Below, piece by piece: positions 1 through 16,300 of a DNA stretch of 23,168 nt. The notes under the pieces were generated by a model. It saw nothing but the letters and a program-made list of their open reading frames with translations, was not told where the DNA came from and did not search any database. The first letter of the stretch is position 1, and each line of letters starts with the position of its first letter. A program made the translations under genes and the position numbers. The DNA comes from a virus. The stretch is from the IMG/VR virus record IMGVR_UViG_3300031839_000574, positions 1 to 23,168 of that record; one strand, given 5' to 3'.

Positions 1-666
1 ATAGAAACCGATGCAATGAAATTTGGAACTGCAGTGCATACTGCAATGCTTGAAAGTGATCAATTTTACAATGACTATCACATTATGCCAAAGGTTGATG
101 GGCGCACAAAAGAGGGCAAGGCACTCAAGGCGCAACACATTGAAAATGCAAAGGGAAAAATTGTGTTGGATGAATACGATCACGAGCGCATCAAAACCAT
201 TATGGAAAACTTAAAAAATAATGAATTAGCGCAAAAGTATTGCAATGGTGAAATTGAAGTTTCACATTATGGGCAAATGGATGGTGTTGATATTCGTGTT
301 CGACCTGATTGCAAAAACTCAATTGCGGGATGGGTTTCGGATGTTAAAACTTGTCAAGACAATTCACCTGAAAAGTTTAGATTGGATGTGCTTAAATATA
401 GATACGATATTCAAGCGGCATTTTATTGTGATGCATTGGGATTTGATCCAAAAGAATTCCGTTTTATTGCGGTTGAAACAAATCATCCATTTTCAATTGA
501 GGTGTATGGTTTGAGTGATGAAATGATTGAACTTGGTCGTAATGGCAACGCATACAAAATGGGATACAAACAGGCACTTGACAATTGGAAATTCTATAAG
601 GAAACCGATGTGGCACTGGGATATGAATCAACAAATCGAAATGAAGATGGGAGTATCATTATCTAA
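1..666 (+). CDS. RecE-like PD-(D/E)XK exonuclease (5' end cut off by window)
   Basis: The reading frame is open to the left edge, so the true start is probably outside; the first ATG inside is at 16. Counting from that ATG, the pattern is that of the RecE/exodeoxyribonuclease VIII-like family (Cas4/RecB nuclease fold): a GTAVHTAML block with H8, an acidic residue D98 in RVRPD, the D109-x-K111 pair in VSDVKTC, and Q133 in DIQAAFYCDAL. Such enzymes resect 5' strands of double-stranded ends so that a single-strand annealing protein can recombine them. No RecT/Erf-type partner is present downstream; it may lie upstream of the window. The stop overlaps the start of the next gene. The nuclease family is confident; the specific RecE role is inferred. 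Confidence 0.8.
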   Translation: METDAMKFGTAVHTAMLESDQFYNDYHIMPKVDGRTKEGKALKAQHIENAKGKIVLDEYDHERIKTIMENLKNNELAQKYCNGEIEVSHYGQMDGVDIRVRPDCKNSIAGWVSDVKTCQDNSPEKFRLDVLKYRYDIQAAFYCDALGFDPKEFRFIAVETNHPFSIEVYGLSDEMIELGRNGNAYKMGYKQALDNWKFYKETDVALGYESTNRNEDGSIII

Positions 667-1132
667 AAAATTGACTTTAAAAGAAGTTGCAATGAATGAA
701 AAACGTAAACTTGTTGAAAAGGTAAATTATTCAAACATTGTCAAATCATCTATTCACGATTTTTTCAAAATTGATATCAATCAAAAAACCCGCAAACGTG
801 AAGTAGTGGAGGCACGTTTTATGTTTTATGAATTATGTCGCAGAAATAGAATGAGTTTGTCGCAAATTGGTCGTTTTGTTGGTAAGGATCACGCAACAGT
901 ATTGCATGGAACAAAACGTTTTGAAATACTTTGTGAAGTTGATGTTGATTTTGAAAAGAATTTTCAAGCGTTGAAATCAATTGTTGATTTTAGATCATCA
1001 CGAAAAGTTGTGCCAAAATTAAGCGGAAAATCACTTTCACATCAACTTGCTGATGCTTTGAATTTAATTGAAAAACTGGAAAATGAAATTGACACTTTGA
1101 GAATTCAAATTGCAAAATGTGAAAATCAATGA
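641..1132 (+). CDS. DnaA domain IV-like DNA-binding protein
   Basis: The centre closely follows the C-terminal, DnaA box-binding domain of bacterial DnaA. A basic segment RKREVVEARFMFYELCRR is followed by a helix-turn-helix ending in GKDHATVLHGTKRFE, matching the DnaA signature (G-x-[RK]-D-H-[ST/A]-T-[LIVM]) at about residues 76-90. No AAA+ ATPase is present, so it could bind DNA but not oligomerise with ATP like DnaA. The C-terminus (LIEKLENEIDTLRIQIAK) is a short coiled coil that could dimerise it. Possible starts are ATG 641, 647 or 692; 641 fits the overlapping style of the operon, while 692 has a purine-rich leader. It sits between nuclease genes and just upstream of the initiator-like gene, which suggests a role in replication control or in competing for host DnaA sites. 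That role is inference. Confidence 0.75.
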   Translation: MKMGVSLSKKLTLKEVAMNEKRKLVEKVNYSNIVKSSIHDFFKIDINQKTRKREVVEARFMFYELCRRNRMSLSQIGRFVGKDHATVLHGTKRFEILCEVDVDFEKNFQALKSIVDFRSSRKVVPKLSGKSLSHQLADALNLIEKLENEIDTLRIQIAKCENQ

Positions 1133-10219: not shown

Positions 10220-10325
10220 AATCAAATGTTGCGCAAAAAAATTGTGTGATAAAATCAAAAGCGGATTGAAAAAATTCATCAATGGATTTTTAAAAGCGTT
10301 TTTCGAGTTCAATGATAGTTGGTAA
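10197..10325 (+). CDS. Possible 42-residue basic amphipathic protein
   Basis: The frame is open from a TTG at 10104, but that would sit wholly inside the basic-protein gene. A GTG at 10197 gives VVKAKENKIKCCAKKLCDKI and an amphipathic basic helix (SGLKKFINGFLKAFFEFNDSW). Three cysteines (CC, C) lie in the first half. The stop overlaps the start region of the next gene. Without an ATG and with this length it is only a possible gene; an amphipathic membrane-active peptide is one option. Confidence 0.35.
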   Translation: MVKAKENKIKCCAKKLCDKIKSGLKKFINGFLKAFFEFNDSW

Positions 10326-10326
10326 A

Positions 10327-10704
10327 ATGAAAAAAGGCATTAACAAATTCAAGGAATTGTTTTGGTATTCAGATAGTGAGCCAAACGAGGTTTTGATTGC
10401 GCTTTGCCACATCATTTGTTTACCCGCTGCCTTGCTTGTTGAGTTTCACAATCCATCAATCATTTTCATTATTGGAGGAATGGCATCAGGGTTGTTTCAA
10501 CTTTGGGCGGTTTTATGGAGTGGGCGTTTGCGATATCGTTTGATAGCGGTGCAAGTTGCTGCAATCATTGCATTAACAACAATCATAAACCTATCAATGG
10601 CGGGATTGATGGAAGGAAGTCGAACGGGGTGGATCATCATTTTAGGTTTTGCCATTTGGAATGCAATTAGAGTATTTAAAGAAAAATTAGAGCGTTATGA
10701 TTAA
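10327..10704 (+). CDS. Membrane protein A of a paralogous pair
   Basis: 125 residues from ATG 10327 (an ATG five codons upstream at 10312 is also possible). A short basic/aromatic N-terminus (KFKELFWYSDSEPNEV) is followed by three or four hydrophobic segments (ALCHIICLPAALLVEF, FIIGGMASGLFQLWAVLW, LIAVQVAAIIALTTIINLSM, GWIIILGFAIWNAIRVF). The next gene encodes a recognisably similar protein of the same length. Placement between portal and minor head protein is odd for a membrane protein. Options are a holin-like pair, superinfection exclusion, or immunity to the downstream MuF fusion; none is shown. Confidence 0.7.
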   Translation: MKKGINKFKELFWYSDSEPNEVLIALCHIICLPAALLVEFHNPSIIFIIGGMASGLFQLWAVLWSGRLRYRLIAVQVAAIIALTTIINLSMAGLMEGSRTGWIIILGFAIWNAIRVFKEKLERYD

Positions 10705-11074
10705 AAGATTGAAAAACATTTGGTCATATAGCGATTCACAACCAACGGAAATCACGTTGGCATTGGCAAATATATTCTTGACACACGTTGCAATTGGAAT
10801 TGAAATTGGTGAACATTACGTTTTTAGGTTTGTTATATTATTGAGCGGATTTTATCAACTTTATTGTGTTTCGAAAAATGATGTTTTGTGTAGATTAAAA
10901 GCGTCATTAATCACCTTTTCTGTTTATTTAATATCAACATTCATATATTTAAAATCTATCGGTTTGCCAACTCCAACGCACTACGGATGGATTGTGCTTT
11001 CATTTGCATCATTTGGAAGTGTGCGAAGATTAATTTTAGAAAAAATACACAAACAAATTAGAAAAAATGGATAA
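10697..11074 (+). CDS. Membrane protein B, paralogue of the preceding gene
   Basis: 125 residues, overlapping the previous gene by 8 bases. It shares with it the N-terminal YSDS[EQ]P[NT]E block, the [AL]ALx[HN]I start of the first hydrophobic segment, G-x-[FY]QL in the middle, and GWI[IV]L-x-FA near the C-terminus. It has about four hydrophobic segments (ANIFLTHVAIGIEIG, FRFVILLSGFYQLYCV, ASLITFSVYLISTFIYL, YGWIVLSFASFGSV) and a basic tail (RRLILEKIHKQIRKNG). The two genes look like an old tandem duplication that has diverged strongly. Function unknown. Confidence 0.7.
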   Translation: MIKRLKNIWSYSDSQPTEITLALANIFLTHVAIGIEIGEHYVFRFVILLSGFYQLYCVSKNDVLCRLKASLITFSVYLISTFIYLKSIGLPTPTHYGWIVLSFASFGSVRRLILEKIHKQIRKNG

Positions 11075-11378
11075 TATCACTCAAATCATTATCACACTGG
11101 CAACCGTTGCGGGATCTGCTGGGATATGGAAGTTCCTTGAGGCACGATTGAAAACAAGGGCGGAAAGCAAAAAAAACGAACTTGAAAATAATGATGGTGT
11201 GCAATATAGGGATGACTTAAAGCATCGAGTTAGAAACCTTGAGGCGTTATTATCACAAGCGAGTGATGACAAAGATGAACTTCGAAATCAAGTTTTGGAA
11301 TTAACCGCAGAGGTCAACGCACTTCGTGTGAAGGTTGAATTTCTTGAAAAGGAAAATGATCGTCTAAAAAACAAATAA
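11067..11378 (+). CDS. Membrane-anchored coiled-coil protein
   Basis: 103 residues, overlapping the previous gene by 8 bases. One N-terminal hydrophobic segment (ITQIIITLATVAGSAGIWKFL, about residues 4-24) is followed by a long charged coiled coil (about residues 45-103) with heptad-like leucines, ending VEFLEKENDRLKNK. This is the shape of an inner-membrane spanin or of small holin-associated proteins, but no lipobox partner is seen. Its stop is directly followed by the ATG of the MuF gene. The role is unknown; a spanin-like or toxin-immunity role would be speculation. Confidence 0.65.
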   Translation: MDNITQIIITLATVAGSAGIWKFLEARLKTRAESKKNELENNDGVQYRDDLKHRVRNLEALLSQASDDKDELRNQVLELTAEVNALRVKVEFLEKENDRLKNK

Positions 11379-13376
11379 ATGCCAACTCCACGTGAAAACG
11401 AAACGCAAAGCCAATTTGTGGCACGTTGCGTGATTGATGATGAAGCAACAAGGGATTTCCCCGATATCGATCAACGCATTGCATTTTGTTATTCCCAATA
11501 TGAAAGGGAACAAAAAAACAATATCATTTCAAAACAAGTGAAAGCCAATTGGCAGGGTGCATTCGAAAATGAAAGGCGCAAAGCTGAAAAGGCAATCATC
11601 GGATCCGTGCAAAGGTTTTATCAATCGGAATATGAAAAGGGAGTTGATGCGTTTATAATTGATAGCACAATTCAATTGGATGGTATATTCACAACAAAAG
11701 GTTTTGAAAAAATATATCGTGATTTATACGTGCAAACTGGAATGAGGTTTGCCAATTGGTATGCGAGAAACTTTGACAAATTTTTAAAAAAAGGAATTAA
11801 CCCAAATCAATATCAAACTCAATGGCAAAACCTATTCGGGCAATTCGCTCAACAAAATGCGGGTGCAAAAGTTGTACTTGTTCAAGGAACTGCAAAGAAA
11901 ACATTGCAAAGGATATTGAGTGCCAATATGAACGATCCTGCATTTGCTGCGCTCGGAGCAAGGCAAAAGCGTGATGTAATACTACGTCAAACAAATTTAT
12001 ATTCAAGGAATCAAGCATTGCGATTGGTGCGTACAGAGGCAACCGCAGCTGCGAATTATGGCACATTGCAATCCGCAACAACTATATTTCCCGCACAACA
12101 AATGATGAAACAATGGGTTTCGGGCAATGATGGGCGCACACGGTCCATTCCTCCAAACGATTTTGATCACGTTGTGATGAATGGCAAACAAGTGAAATAT
12201 GAGGATACATTCAGCGTTCAAGGGCAACAAATGCGTTTTCCTGCGGATTCATCATTGGGTGCATCAGCGGGAAACATTGTGAATTGCAGATGCAGCGTGT
12301 TTCCATTCCCAATGGAGGAGGCACAAGCAATCGGACAATTTGAAAGTATTGGATTTGGCATTGGTGCGGTGCAACCCGTATTGGCGGGAACTGAAACGAT
12401 TGCAGCAACACAATCATTTGCAACACAAGCAACACAAGCAACAACCGCTGCGATTGATTATTCAGCATTCAGGGCAAAAAGCAAAGCACAAGCGCAAAAG
12501 ATTGCTAATGATTTAGGAATTAAAAACTTTGATTTTGATGGATTGAATATGAATATCACGAATGAATATCTTGTTGGATCAGCAAAAATAAAAGATCGGT
12601 TTGGTTTTGTTTTAGATACGCTCTCATCAGGAAAGGGATTGCGTAATATGATTTACAACAATACGTTTGATGATTTATTCAAACAATCAAAGGAGTTGCG
12701 TGATTTAGTTGAAAAATATGGAATGACTGTTGTTAAAAAGAAAATAAATTCAGCAATAAAATCAAGGTTTAAGTTTAGGAGCAGAGGAAAAACGAAAAAT
12801 TTACTCAATGATCATGGTATTGCCAACTTTTCATTGTTTCCTGAAAGTAGATTTATTTCAATACAGGGTCAAATTTATAAATTTAATGTTGGTCAATACA
12901 CTGGAATCAGGCATTCAATGGATTATAAGAACGTGCAAAGATTGATTGAAGCAATAAAAAATCAAAGATCACGTGGTTTCTTTGCGCAAGGTGTTGATTC
13001 GGTTGAATATATCGTGATGCACGAATTCGGACACGCACTGGATCACGCAGTTGGATTTGCCAAAAGCAAAGTATTCAGGGATCTATTGGCTAAATATAGG
13101 GCAAATGGGGATGATTGGATTGCTAAAAATTTAAGCAGCTACGGAGTTTCAGATATTGCAGATGATGCATCAGAACTTATTGCAGAGGCATTTGCGGAAT
13201 ATATGACATCACCAAACCCACGTTTGATTGCACGTGAAGTTGGTGAAGCGTTGGAAAAGTATTTCAAATTAAACAAAAAGAATATGGATATTAGCGCACC
13301 AAAAAAGCAAACTGAAATACCAAAACAAACAATTCCGTTCGTTTTATCACCGCAGCAACTTAAAAAATATATTTAG
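11379..13376 (+). CDS. MuF-type minor head protein fused to zinc-metallopeptidase-like domain
   Basis: 665 residues in three parts. Residues 1-45 carry ENETQSQFVARCVIDDEA, then DQRIAFCYSQYE, a short cysteine-containing motif seen at the start of several phage head proteins. Residues ~60-310 are the SPP1 gp7/Mu F-like head morphogenesis domain, ending with the typical FPADSSLGASAGNIVNCRC (C near 302). After an Ala/Gln/Thr-rich linker (~335-365) comes a ~290-residue C-terminal region with HEFGH (548-552) and ELIAEAFAEYM (glutamates 603 and 607). This is the HExxH-plus-downstream-glutamate signature of zincins such as the anthrax lethal-factor-like family. MuF proteins sit inside the head near the portal and some carry C-terminal toxin domains delivered with DNA. 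Peptidase activity is inferred from the intact motif. Confidence 0.88.
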   Translation: MPTPRENETQSQFVARCVIDDEATRDFPDIDQRIAFCYSQYEREQKNNIISKQVKANWQGAFENERRKAEKAIIGSVQRFYQSEYEKGVDAFIIDSTIQLDGIFTTKGFEKIYRDLYVQTGMRFANWYARNFDKFLKKGINPNQYQTQWQNLFGQFAQQNAGAKVVLVQGTAKKTLQRILSANMNDPAFAALGARQKRDVILRQTNLYSRNQALRLVRTEATAAANYGTLQSATTIFPAQQMMKQWVSGNDGRTRSIPPNDFDHVVMNGKQVKYEDTFSVQGQQMRFPADSSLGASAGNIVNCRCSVFPFPMEEAQAIGQFESIGFGIGAVQPVLAGTETIAATQSFATQATQATTAAIDYSAFRAKSKAQAQKIANDLGIKNFDFDGLNMNITNEYLVGSAKIKDRFGFVLDTLSSGKGLRNMIYNNTFDDLFKQSKELRDLVEKYGMTVVKKKINSAIKSRFKFRSRGKTKNLLNDHGIANFSLFPESRFISIQGQIYKFNVGQYTGIRHSMDYKNVQRLIEAIKNQRSRGFFAQGVDSVEYIVMHEFGHALDHAVGFAKSKVFRDLLAKYRANGDDWIAKNLSSYGVSDIADDASELIAEAFAEYMTSPNPRLIAREVGEALEKYFKLNKKNMDISAPKKQTEIPKQTIPFVLSPQQLKKYI

Positions 13377-13402
13377 TAAATTTGTACAAAATAGTTTTAC
13401 TA
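13374..13402 (+). promoter_or_regulatory. -7-like element inside an inverted repeat before the protease gene
   Basis: TAAATTTG (13377-13384) matches TAnnTTTG, but no TTTG lies at the -33 distance. It is embedded in a 7-bp inverted repeat, TAGTAAA (13374-13380) and TTTACTA (13396-13402), whose right arm touches the start codon at 13402. It could be a weak regulated promoter or an RNA hairpin masking the start. Confidence 0.3.
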
Positions 13403-14079
13403 TGGCAATGATTTACAAGGCATCACCAATGGGTGAAATTGCTGACATCGATGAAAAAATGGGAATCGTAAAAGGTTACGGATCGTATTTTGGCAACAAG
13501 GATTCCGATGGTGATGTGATTGCAAAAGGAGCGTATCAAAAAACCATCAAGGAAAATGGGGAACGTGTTCGCTACTTATGGCAACACAAAATGGATAAAC
13601 CCATTGGAAAAATAAAAGAAATGTATGAGGATGACAAAGGTTTGATGTTTGTCGCTGAAATACCAAAAACAACACTTGGCAATGATGCGCTTGAATTAAT
13701 GAAAGCGGGAATCGTAACGGAAAACTCCGTTGGTATATTGCCAATCCAAAAACAAATGAAGGATGGTTTTCGTGAAATAACGGAGGTCAAACTTTACGAA
13801 ATATCCGCAGTAACTTTGGCAGCCAATGATCAAGCAAAGATTTTGGATGTGAAGGGGAAAATGGATATTGAAAACGAATTCAAGCGTTTCGATGCATTGG
13901 CAAAACTTATCCGCAAGGGCAAGATTTCCGATGAAATGGGATACGCTATTGAAGCCGAAATACTAAAATTGAAGTCATTTTTTATTGATTTCACAAAGCC
14001 GACTGATGAGGTCACTTTGCCGAAAAAAGATGATGCGATTGAGGTGTTCTCATATTTATCAAATAAATTAACTAAATAA
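13402..14079 (+). CDS. Prohead maturation protease (HK97 gp4-like, U35)
   Basis: 225 residues. The fold pattern fits peptidase family U35/S78-like herpesvirus-type assemblins. It shows GYGSYFGNKDSDGDVIAKGAY, the histidine in YLWQHKMDKPIGKI (H62), and the serine in TENSVGILP (S109), then KLYEISAVTLAANDQAKI. The remaining ~70 residues are a helical tail (FKRFDALAKLIRKGKI) that is probably removed or acts in assembly. The enzyme cuts the scaffold-like N-terminus from the capsid protein encoded next and then itself. The length is normal and both catalytic residues are present. Confidence 0.93.
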   Translation: MAMIYKASPMGEIADIDEKMGIVKGYGSYFGNKDSDGDVIAKGAYQKTIKENGERVRYLWQHKMDKPIGKIKEMYEDDKGLMFVAEIPKTTLGNDALELMKAGIVTENSVGILPIQKQMKDGFREITEVKLYEISAVTLAANDQAKILDVKGKMDIENEFKRFDALAKLIRKGKISDEMGYAIEAEILKLKSFFIDFTKPTDEVTLPKKDDAIEVFSYLSNKLTK

Positions 14080-15886: not shown

Positions 15887-15915
15887 GGCAATCATTTTTG
15901 GTTGCCTTTTTTTTT
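15887..15915 (+). terminator. Rho-independent terminator
   Basis: GGCAATC (15887-15893) pairs with GGTTGCC (15900-15906), one wobble, six-base loop ATTTTT, then T9 (15907-15915). It closes the three-gene cluster. The next gene starts only 13 bases later, so it needs readthrough or its own nearly leaderless promoter. Confidence 0.85.
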
Positions 15916-15928
15916 GTACTTTTATTAT

Positions 15929-16300
15929 GTGGATACAAATCAACGGGGTTGCTTTGCGGAATATAAATTCGGCACAATAGCAATGCAAAATGGATTCAAT
16001 GTGTCAATGCCATTGCTTGATGCATCACCTTATGATGCCATAATTGAAAAGAATGGGCAACTTTTCAAGATCCAAATCAAATATATTTCTGAAGATCGTA
16101 AAAAAAACAAAAGTAGCATTCACCTTTCATTGACCAGAACGGGAAAAGGGTATTTGGAAAAATACGTTGATTACTTTGCAATCTACTTTGTTGAATTGGA
16201 TGGGTTTTATATTATTAAGAATAAAGGGCAAAAAGCGATAAGATTATCAACAACGGGAATATATAAAGATAATTTCAATAACTTTGCATTAATTCTGTAA
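15929..16300 (+). CDS. PD-(D/E)XK endonuclease (group I intron/homing-endonuclease-associated type)
   Basis: 123 residues from GTG 15929 (MDTNQRGCFAEYKFGTIAMQ if read with initiator Met); no in-frame ATG precedes the core, and farther-upstream TTGs lie in the terminator. Core pattern: E in CFAEYKFGTIA, D in MPLLDASPYDAIIEKNG, and Q-I-K in FKIQIKYI, then a beta-rich tail (YFAIYFVELDGFYII). This matches the small PD-(D/E)XK proteins related to the I-Ssp6803I homing endonuclease. It has terminators on both sides and sits between capsid and connector genes, so it looks like an independently mobile element. Whether it cuts specific DNA is unknown. Confidence 0.75.
   Translation: MDTNQRGCFAEYKFGTIAMQNGFNVSMPLLDASPYDAIIEKNGQLFKIQIKYISEDRKKNKSSIHLSLTRTGKGYLEKYVDYFAIYFVELDGFYIIKNKGQKAIRLSTTGIYKDNFNNFALIL

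What the first reader, a model, noticed from the sequence alone, without database searches (positions are those of the whole stretch)
11379..13376. MuF head protein fused to an intact HEFGH zincin domain
The C-terminal ~290 residues carry HEFGH (548-552) and glutamates at 603/607, a full zincin metal site. They are attached by a low-complexity linker to a MuF-type minor head protein. Such proteins sit in the head at the portal and could be ejected with DNA, so this may be a protease effector delivered into the host, or a head-maturation enzyme.
Basis: partly seen in the sequence, partly recalled or inferred. Interest (0 to 1): 0.75.

Follow-up and report, generated by a model that had tools for sequence, protein, structure and literature searches.

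The report
Optional protease on phage head protein
A phage carries a protein-cutting enzyme fused to the end of a protein that sits at the DNA gate of its head; almost identical phages lack the enzyme, so it looks like an optional weapon or helper delivered into the bacterium rather than a building part of the virus.

Summary
In detail: ORF 11379-13376 (665 aa) is a MuF minor head protein with a C-terminal HExxH zincin. The zincin half models confidently (pLDDT 88.6) and has the fold of lethal-factor-type (M34/ATLF) metallopeptidases; H548, E549, H552, E599 and E603 are invariant in 38 aligned domains, so the third ligand is probably E599, not 603/607. MuF-metallopeptidase fusions are already known (Jamet 2017; PHROG 324). 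It is thus not needed to build the head; a separate S78 prohead protease lies 25 bp downstream. (2) In 64 of 72 other virus loci with this zincin a small gene of one of two families follows; sought on its own, family A lies behind a zincin in 80 of the 80 loci returned. It looks like a dedicated partner, perhaps an inhibitor. (3) The window's clade lacks that partner (0 of 7) and has a conserved 42-43-residue C-terminal tail instead. Best reading: a virion-delivered accessory protease acting on a host protein. Activity, delivery and substrate are untested.

The parts
11379..13376 (+). MuF-zincin fusion gene, 665 aa
11547..12353 (+). MuF minor head protein region (residues 57-325)
   Evidence: PF04233 E 3.7e-8, phrog_2468 E 4e-28, own MuF profile 57-325
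12354..12470 (+). Ala/Thr/Gln-rich linker (residues 326-364)
12359..13364 (+). stretch absent from zincin-less relatives (about 1 kb cassette)
   Evidence: BLASTN breakpoints of L002 (100% identical in these proteins) against L013
12471..13292 (+). lethal-factor-type zincin domain (residues 365-638)
   Evidence: AF2 pLDDT 88.6; VIA-align Z 10.7; profile vs PDB E 2.7e-7
12651..12890 (+). segment that differs strongly between the window, L009 and L026 alleles (residues 425-504), possible substrate-recognition part
13020..13034 (+). HEFGH motif (residues 548-552)
13173..13187 (+). second metal-site helix, E599 (likely ligand) to E603
   Evidence: invariant in 38 of 38
13293..13373 (+). disordered C-terminal tail with conserved end (residues 639-665)
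   Evidence: pLDDT under 50 from model residue 275; tail lengths; conservation
13402..14079 (+). S78 prohead protease, next gene, 25 bp downstream; relatives outside the clade have the small partner gene at this place
   Evidence: PF04586 E 3.5e-29; coordinates, same gap in relatives

Best explanation
The gene makes a MuF head protein that should sit in one or a few copies at the portal inside the head, carrying a lethal-factor-type zinc protease as its C-terminal cargo. On infection the protein, or its protease part, enters the cell with the DNA and cuts one or a few host proteins, for example a defence or regulatory protein, which helps infection in some hosts only. Shown: MuF plus intact zincin; zincin optional in near-identical phages and under purifying selection; separate maturation protease. 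Inferred: presence in the virion, ejection, proteolytic activity, a host target.
For: Intact lethal-factor-type zincin. Optional cassette: L005 with zincin against L013 without, 99.3% identity over 1870 bp upstream and 98.2% over 2078 bp downstream, with 1008 bp against 37 bp between; at least 5 changes of state on the MuF tree of 15 rows. Selection: dN/dS 0.051-0.130 in the 10 pairs among five close members. A segment that differs between three alleles beside a conserved catalytic core suits changing targets. Jamet et al. already proposed that MuF peptidases act mildly in the new host, including against cellular defences.
Against: No direct evidence of activity, virion presence or ejection. 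The zincin could act inside the particle. The low dN/dS outside the variable segment is not what a fast arms race at the catalytic core would give. In the closer pairs (window against L003 and L005) the segment is not variable. The host is only guessed: portal and MuF are nearest to Cellulophaga phages, but the capsid protein is nearest to unrelated phages.
Confidence: 0.6

Rival explanations
1. Virion-internal or self-processing protease: the zincin cuts the MuF protein or another head protein to free the cargo or ready the particle, as proposed for zincins in polyvalent proteins such as P1 DdrB.
For: Iyer et al. argue autoprocessing for phage zincins (PMC5512222 passages); a flexible linker joins the two parts.
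Against: Near-identical phages without the zincin have the same portal, MuF, protease and capsid genes, so no shared head protein needs it; in them there would be no cargo to free.
Confidence: 0.17
2. MuF polymorphic toxin for competition between bacteria: prophage-encoded, strongly toxic, with an immunity gene downstream.
For: Same architecture class; 20% of 191 MuF toxins carry a metallopeptidase and 89.4% a small downstream ORF (PMC5576092 sections 7 and 8). In 64 of 72 loci outside the clade a small partner gene does follow.
Against: No partner gene in the window's clade: 0 of 7 loci, and in six frames of the clade's contigs only weak family A matches (best E 0.044, nearly all on the minus strand) and none for family B. 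No PF00589 or PF00239 recombinase in any of 8 records, one of which runs through more than a full genome unit. About a tenth of Jamet's MuF toxins also lack a small ORF, so this is not decisive.
Confidence: 0.1
3. Head-maturation enzyme of this phage.
For: It lies in the head module; phrog_595, one weaker match of the whole protein, is named head maturation protease.
Against: S78 prohead protease next door; zincin-less siblings; the phrog_595 match covers residues 127-310, the MuF part, not the zincin.
Confidence: 0.04
4. Entry helper acting on the cell envelope or on a surface protein during DNA passage.
For: Structural matches include secreted PPEP proteases (that they cut surface proteins is recalled).
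Against: MuF proteins are tied to the portal inside the head rather than to the tail tip (for SPP1); no envelope-binding part was named by Pfam, though no dedicated search for signals was made.
Confidence: 0.06

Closest known systems
PHROG 324, MuF-zincin head morphogenesis family
   Same: MuF around profile 268-314 and zincin at 515-621 in one chain; the window matches both.
   Different: The window clade has a C-terminal tail, no downstream partner gene and an on/off zincin; whether other PHROG 324 members do was not examined.
MuF polymorphic toxins with metallopeptidase domain (Jamet et al. 2017, PMC5576092)
   Same: N-terminal MuF, C-terminal metallopeptidase; short and extended MuF forms exist.
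   Different: There 89.4% have a small downstream ORF and no virulent phage had a MuF with a known toxin domain; here no such ORF, and no recombinase found in fragments.
Flavobacterium phage lotta8-1/8-2 gp028 and gp029
   Same: Isolated phage with a MuF-zincin (516 aa, HEFGH) annotated as structural protein with PF04233, by sequence similarity.
   Different: It has the family A gene directly downstream; my own MuF profile did not detect its MuF part; different head module. It comes from a study of 38 virulent phages (PMC7077304 abstract and passages).
Lethal factor catalytic domain and Pro-Pro endopeptidases (PPEP-1, PPEP-3)
   Same: Fold and HExxH site: Z 10.7 over 173 residues for the first.
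   Different: About 18% identity; PPEP Z values of 6.9 and 6.5 are no higher than those of other rows in the list; no relation in delivery or host is shown; the window domain alone is not called by Pfam ATLF.
Zincin-like MPTase domains of polyvalent phage proteins (Iyer et al. 2017, PMC5512222)
   Same: Phage zincin cargo; MuF fused to effectors (passages).
   Different: Those are multidomain proteins; here a single cargo on MuF.
Bxa, Bacteroides MuF-ADP-ribosyltransferase (PMC11699363)
   Same: MuF fused to an enzyme, in a Bacteroides prophage (passages).
   Different: Different enzyme, prophage, with two cognate immunity proteins.

Membership tests
Phage MuF minor head proteins (PF04233) | Match above the gathering score | tested here: met
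   34.5 bits against cut-off 29.6
Lethal-factor-type zincins (M34/ATLF) | HExxH plus downstream Glu, conserved | tested here: met
   H548 E549 H552 E599 E603 invariant in 38 of 38; partly built in by the scan patterns, and one distant profile match, L048, has no HExxH
Lethal-factor-type zincins (M34/ATLF) | Fold of the catalytic domain | tested here: met
   All 22 listed rows with Z above 8 are lethal factor, best 10.7; Foldseek ranks 1-47 are lethal factor or PPEP, but none has E at or below 0.001
Pfam ATLF PF07737 | Profile match of the window protein | tested here: not met
   None for the window domain at E 0.01, nor for the full protein at E 1; 14 of 38 members match
MuF polymorphic toxins | C-terminal toxin-type enzymatic domain on MuF | tested here: met
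MuF polymorphic toxins | Small immunity-type ORF directly downstream | tested here: not met
   S78 protease 25 bp downstream; 0 of 7 clade loci have family A or B
MuF polymorphic toxins | Carried by temperate phages | tested here: inconclusive
   No PF00589 or PF00239 in 8 of 8 records, but these may be fragments
MuF polymorphic toxins | Toxic to bacteria | not testable with these tools
   needs expression
Prohead (maturation) proteases | Needed by the phage's head module | tested here: not met
   Absent from near-identical phages; S78 protease present
PHROG 324 | Matches in both MuF and zincin parts | tested here: met
   zincin 3.8e-11, MuF 6.3e-5

The most novel reading that the evidence does not exclude
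Phage-delivered lethal-factor-type zincins form a protease-inhibitor system of their own. Most are held inactive during head assembly by a dedicated small inhibitor encoded directly downstream (family A with three invariant Cys and one His, or family B). The window's clade has replaced the separate inhibitor by a conserved C-terminal tail of its own chain that inhibits in cis until ejection, and trades the whole protease module on and off between near-identical phages according to host.
Probability: 0.25. Interest if true: 0.75.

Novelty: new variant of a known kind. Interest (0 to 1): 0.55.

Why it matters
Proteases carried in phage heads have been predicted before, and none of the papers seen here tests one. 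This is a natural experiment: phages almost identical but for the protease domain, in which its benefit can be measured. The partner families give a testable handle on how a phage keeps such an enzyme harmless before release, and the isolated phages lotta8-1/8-2 carry the pair.

Tried and rejected
Head-maturation role: rejected. Dead or decaying domain: rejected by invariant site and dN/dS. The small hydrophobic-looking and coiled-coil genes at 10312-11378 as immunity genes: found besides the window only in L002 and L009, not in zincin-carrying L003, L005, L006 and L007, so rejected. Partner gene elsewhere in the clade: the best family A scores were E 0.044 and weaker, nearly all on the minus strand, and family B gave none. 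Structure of the family A protein: poor model (pLDDT 61.8, pTM 0.38), not used. Foldseek by itself is weak (best E 0.011, TM 0.35); the fold claim rests on Z and profile scores. Whether repeats flank the cassette was only looked at by eye; none is claimed. Papers: searches are listings; supplements were not read, so whether Jamet's small ORFs include family A or B is not known.

Full report
What is there. The ORF 11379-13376 encodes 665 aa. Residues 57-325 are a MuF minor head protein, and an Ala/Thr-rich linker leads to a C-terminal zincin. The neighbours are terminase, portal, four small ORFs, this gene, an S78 prohead protease 25 bp downstream, and a capsid protein of the Phage_capsid family. 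The record is a 23,168-base virus record whose first and last ORFs are cut. The host may be a Bacteroidota bacterium: portal and MuF are nearest to Cellulophaga phages, although the capsid protein is nearest to unrelated phages.

The fold. Thirty-eight C-terminal domains were aligned (the window, L005 and 36 of the 42 representatives picked, multi-zincin and truncated chains left out). H548, E549, H552, E599 and E603 (window numbering) are invariant in 38 of 38 and Y588 in at least 90%. The scan patterns asked for HE-GH or AEAF-EY, so part of this is built in; one more distant profile match, L048 of Nonomuraea, has no HExxH. AlphaFold2 on this alignment gave pLDDT 88.6 and pTM 0.84, with only the last 27 residues under 50. 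Against solved structures the 22 listed rows with Z above 8 are all lethal factor, matched over its residues 560-778 (best Z 10.7, 173 residues, 3.4 A); Pro-Pro endopeptidases follow at 6.9 and 6.5, mixed with other rows such as edema factor at 6.6. Foldseek puts lethal factor and PPEP in ranks 1-47 but weakly (best E 0.011). In the library of predicted viral proteins the best matches are mostly phage minor capsid proteins and phage proteins named lethal factor (best E 4.6e-6, six at or below 0.001). The sequence profile finds a lethal factor fragment at E 2.7e-7. Pfam ATLF is called for 14 of 38 members, not for the window itself. This is a statement about fold, not about toxicity to animals.

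It is an optional cassette. A scan with the whole protein gave 23 virus loci. Nine carry the zincin (L002-L009 and L020, some cut by contig ends), 12 end shortly after the MuF part with a short tail of their own (GFGLS...), L023 has a broken MuF frame and no zincin, and L024 is too short to tell. L026, found later, also carries it. L005 and L013 are 99.3% identical over 1870 bp up to the junction and 98.2% over 2078 bp after it; between lie 1008 bp in one and 37 bp in the other. L006 and L011 are 97.3% identical over 5143 bp upstream. A MuF DNA tree of 15 rows (of 24 loci; nine were left out as incomplete, broken or near-copies, and 14 rows are different) needs at least 5 gains or losses; the label is no more clustered than in shuffles (284 of 500 as low), and recombination could add to the count. 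So the zincin cannot be needed to build the head.

It is nevertheless selected. dN/dS of the zincin is 0.051-0.130 in the 10 pairs among the window, L003, L004, L005 and L008. In the six pairs where MuF was also measured, it is lower than MuF in four and slightly higher in two. More distant pairs give 0.16-0.24 (with L026) and 0.29-0.37 (L009 with the five close ones). Between the window, L009 and L026, residues 425-504 share only 5-50% in 20-residue windows (gaps counted as differences) while residues 545-624 share 70-95%; in the close pairs window-L003 and window-L005 the segment is 80-100% identical. A changing substrate-recognition segment is a possible reading.

The wider family and its partner gene. 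A scan with the catalytic part gave 86 virus loci, of which the best 80 were kept. In the 72 outside the window's clade, my MuF profile finds MuF in the same ORF in 53. The gene directly downstream is a small protein of one of two families: 53 of 72 have family A, 11 family B, 6 neither, and 2 are too short to tell (nine re-fetched or isolate loci and the 11 genome loci were left out, and some of the 72 are near-copies). The small proteins are mostly 47-76 aa, one 135. Family A has invariant C8, C11, C21 and H39, no convincing Pfam match and in PHROGs only families of unknown function. Sought on its own in the virus collection, family A gave 102 loci, best 80 kept, and 80 of 80 have a zincin ORF upstream, 79 within 25 bp and one at 154, median 3. 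In 78 the HExxH is visible; in two (L183, L196) only the end of the zincin is on the contig. Twenty-five of the 80 overlap loci fetched before; in the 55 new ones it is 53 of 55 with visible HExxH, and among all 296 stop-to-stop ORFs of 150 aa or more in those loci just 53 contain HExxH at all. The 80 fall into 39 clusters at 80% identity. The query was made from zincin-linked copies, so the set leans towards close relatives. MuF was detected in 50 of the 80 upstream ORFs; of the other 30 some are truncated, some show MuF-like stretches by eye, and Pfam named no head domain in the five tested. So family A goes with the zincin, whether or not MuF is recognised. Family B gave 37 loci, 32 with a zincin upstream; of the five others one (L237) has almost no upstream sequence. 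Against this: Brevibacillus phage Jenst has a weak family A relative (E 0.006) with no zincin annotated next to it.

The window clade is the exception. None of 7 clade loci has a partner (the window and its copy L002 have none either), and none was found elsewhere on their contigs better than E 0.044. Zincins with a partner end 9-15 residues after the last conserved Gly (49 of 53 for A, 11 of 11 for B; the other four A cases have 159-1020), while the clade has 42-43 there (7 of 7). Of the eight without a detected partner, L055 has 45, L056 31, the pair L057/L058 10, and L067, L069, L083 and L115 are long or cut chains. The clade's tail ends in a conserved IPFV-S-QLKKYI-type stretch. That the tail replaces the partner is a guess.

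Lifestyle. No PF00589 or PF00239 recombinase was found in 8 of 8 records, the window included. G003 (35.5 kb, a zincin-less relative) repeats its first 7.9 kb at its end at 91-98% identity, so one unit is about 27.4 kb and neither recombinase lies in it; it has holin and endolysin genes. The phages look virulent, but other integration routes were not searched and absence in metagenome records is not proof. Jamet et al. found no MuF with a known toxin domain in virulent phages, though their association of toxin genes with temperate phages was not significant (p 0.055). Flavobacterium phages lotta8-1/8-2, from a study of 38 virulent phages, also carry a MuF-zincin plus family A gene.

How it most likely works. 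[quoted passage not shown] Inferred: the fusion is packaged, enters the cell and cuts a host protein. The on/off pattern in near-identical genomes with purifying selection fits a host-dependent benefit such as counter-defence. Jamet et al. already suggested such a role for MuF peptidases, so the idea is not new; the optionality in near-identical phages and the two partner families were not met in what I saw of the papers (searches; PMC5576092 sections 7 and 8 and passages; passages only of PMC3482391, PMC5512222, PMC11699363 and PMC7077304).

Noticed in passing
L059-L126 and L131-L243, directly downstream of the zincin genes: Two small protein families (A: three invariant Cys and one His, about 60 aa; B: about 55 aa) follow phage zincin genes in most loci seen; possible inhibitors or immunity proteins.
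   Followed up: yes
L082:2399-9226, L083, L067:4954-9792, L069: Very long phage proteins (1612-2275 aa; L083 cut) with two to four HExxH zincin repeats, in L082/L083 in one chain with MuF.
   Followed up: no
L045-L047, L049-L052: Nocardia ORFs of at least 2826-4103 aa (they run off the loci) with several zincin repeats of the same kind.
   Followed up: no
window 13377-13391: TAAATTTGTACAAAA between the zincin gene and the prohead protease, similar in relatives and like the Bacteroidota promoter motif (recalled); 23 of 100 shuffles have at least one match at one mismatch.
   Followed up: partly
window 10312-11378: Two related small hydrophobic-looking proteins and a coiled-coil-like protein between portal and MuF, found besides the window only in L002 and L009 of the relatives.
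   Followed up: partly
L127:1-7947 against L012:11686-19734: Record G003 wraps round its genome with 91-98% identity between the two copies, as if two strains were assembled into one contig.
   Followed up: partly
L023:1124-1606: A zincin-less relative whose MuF frame is broken.
   Followed up: no
window 15902-16300: A PD-(D/E)XK nuclease (PF11645, E 1.1e-15) a little behind the capsid gene.
   Followed up: no
window 527-1132: A phage protein with a DnaA-type DNA-binding domain (PF08299, E 2.3e-12).
   Followed up: no
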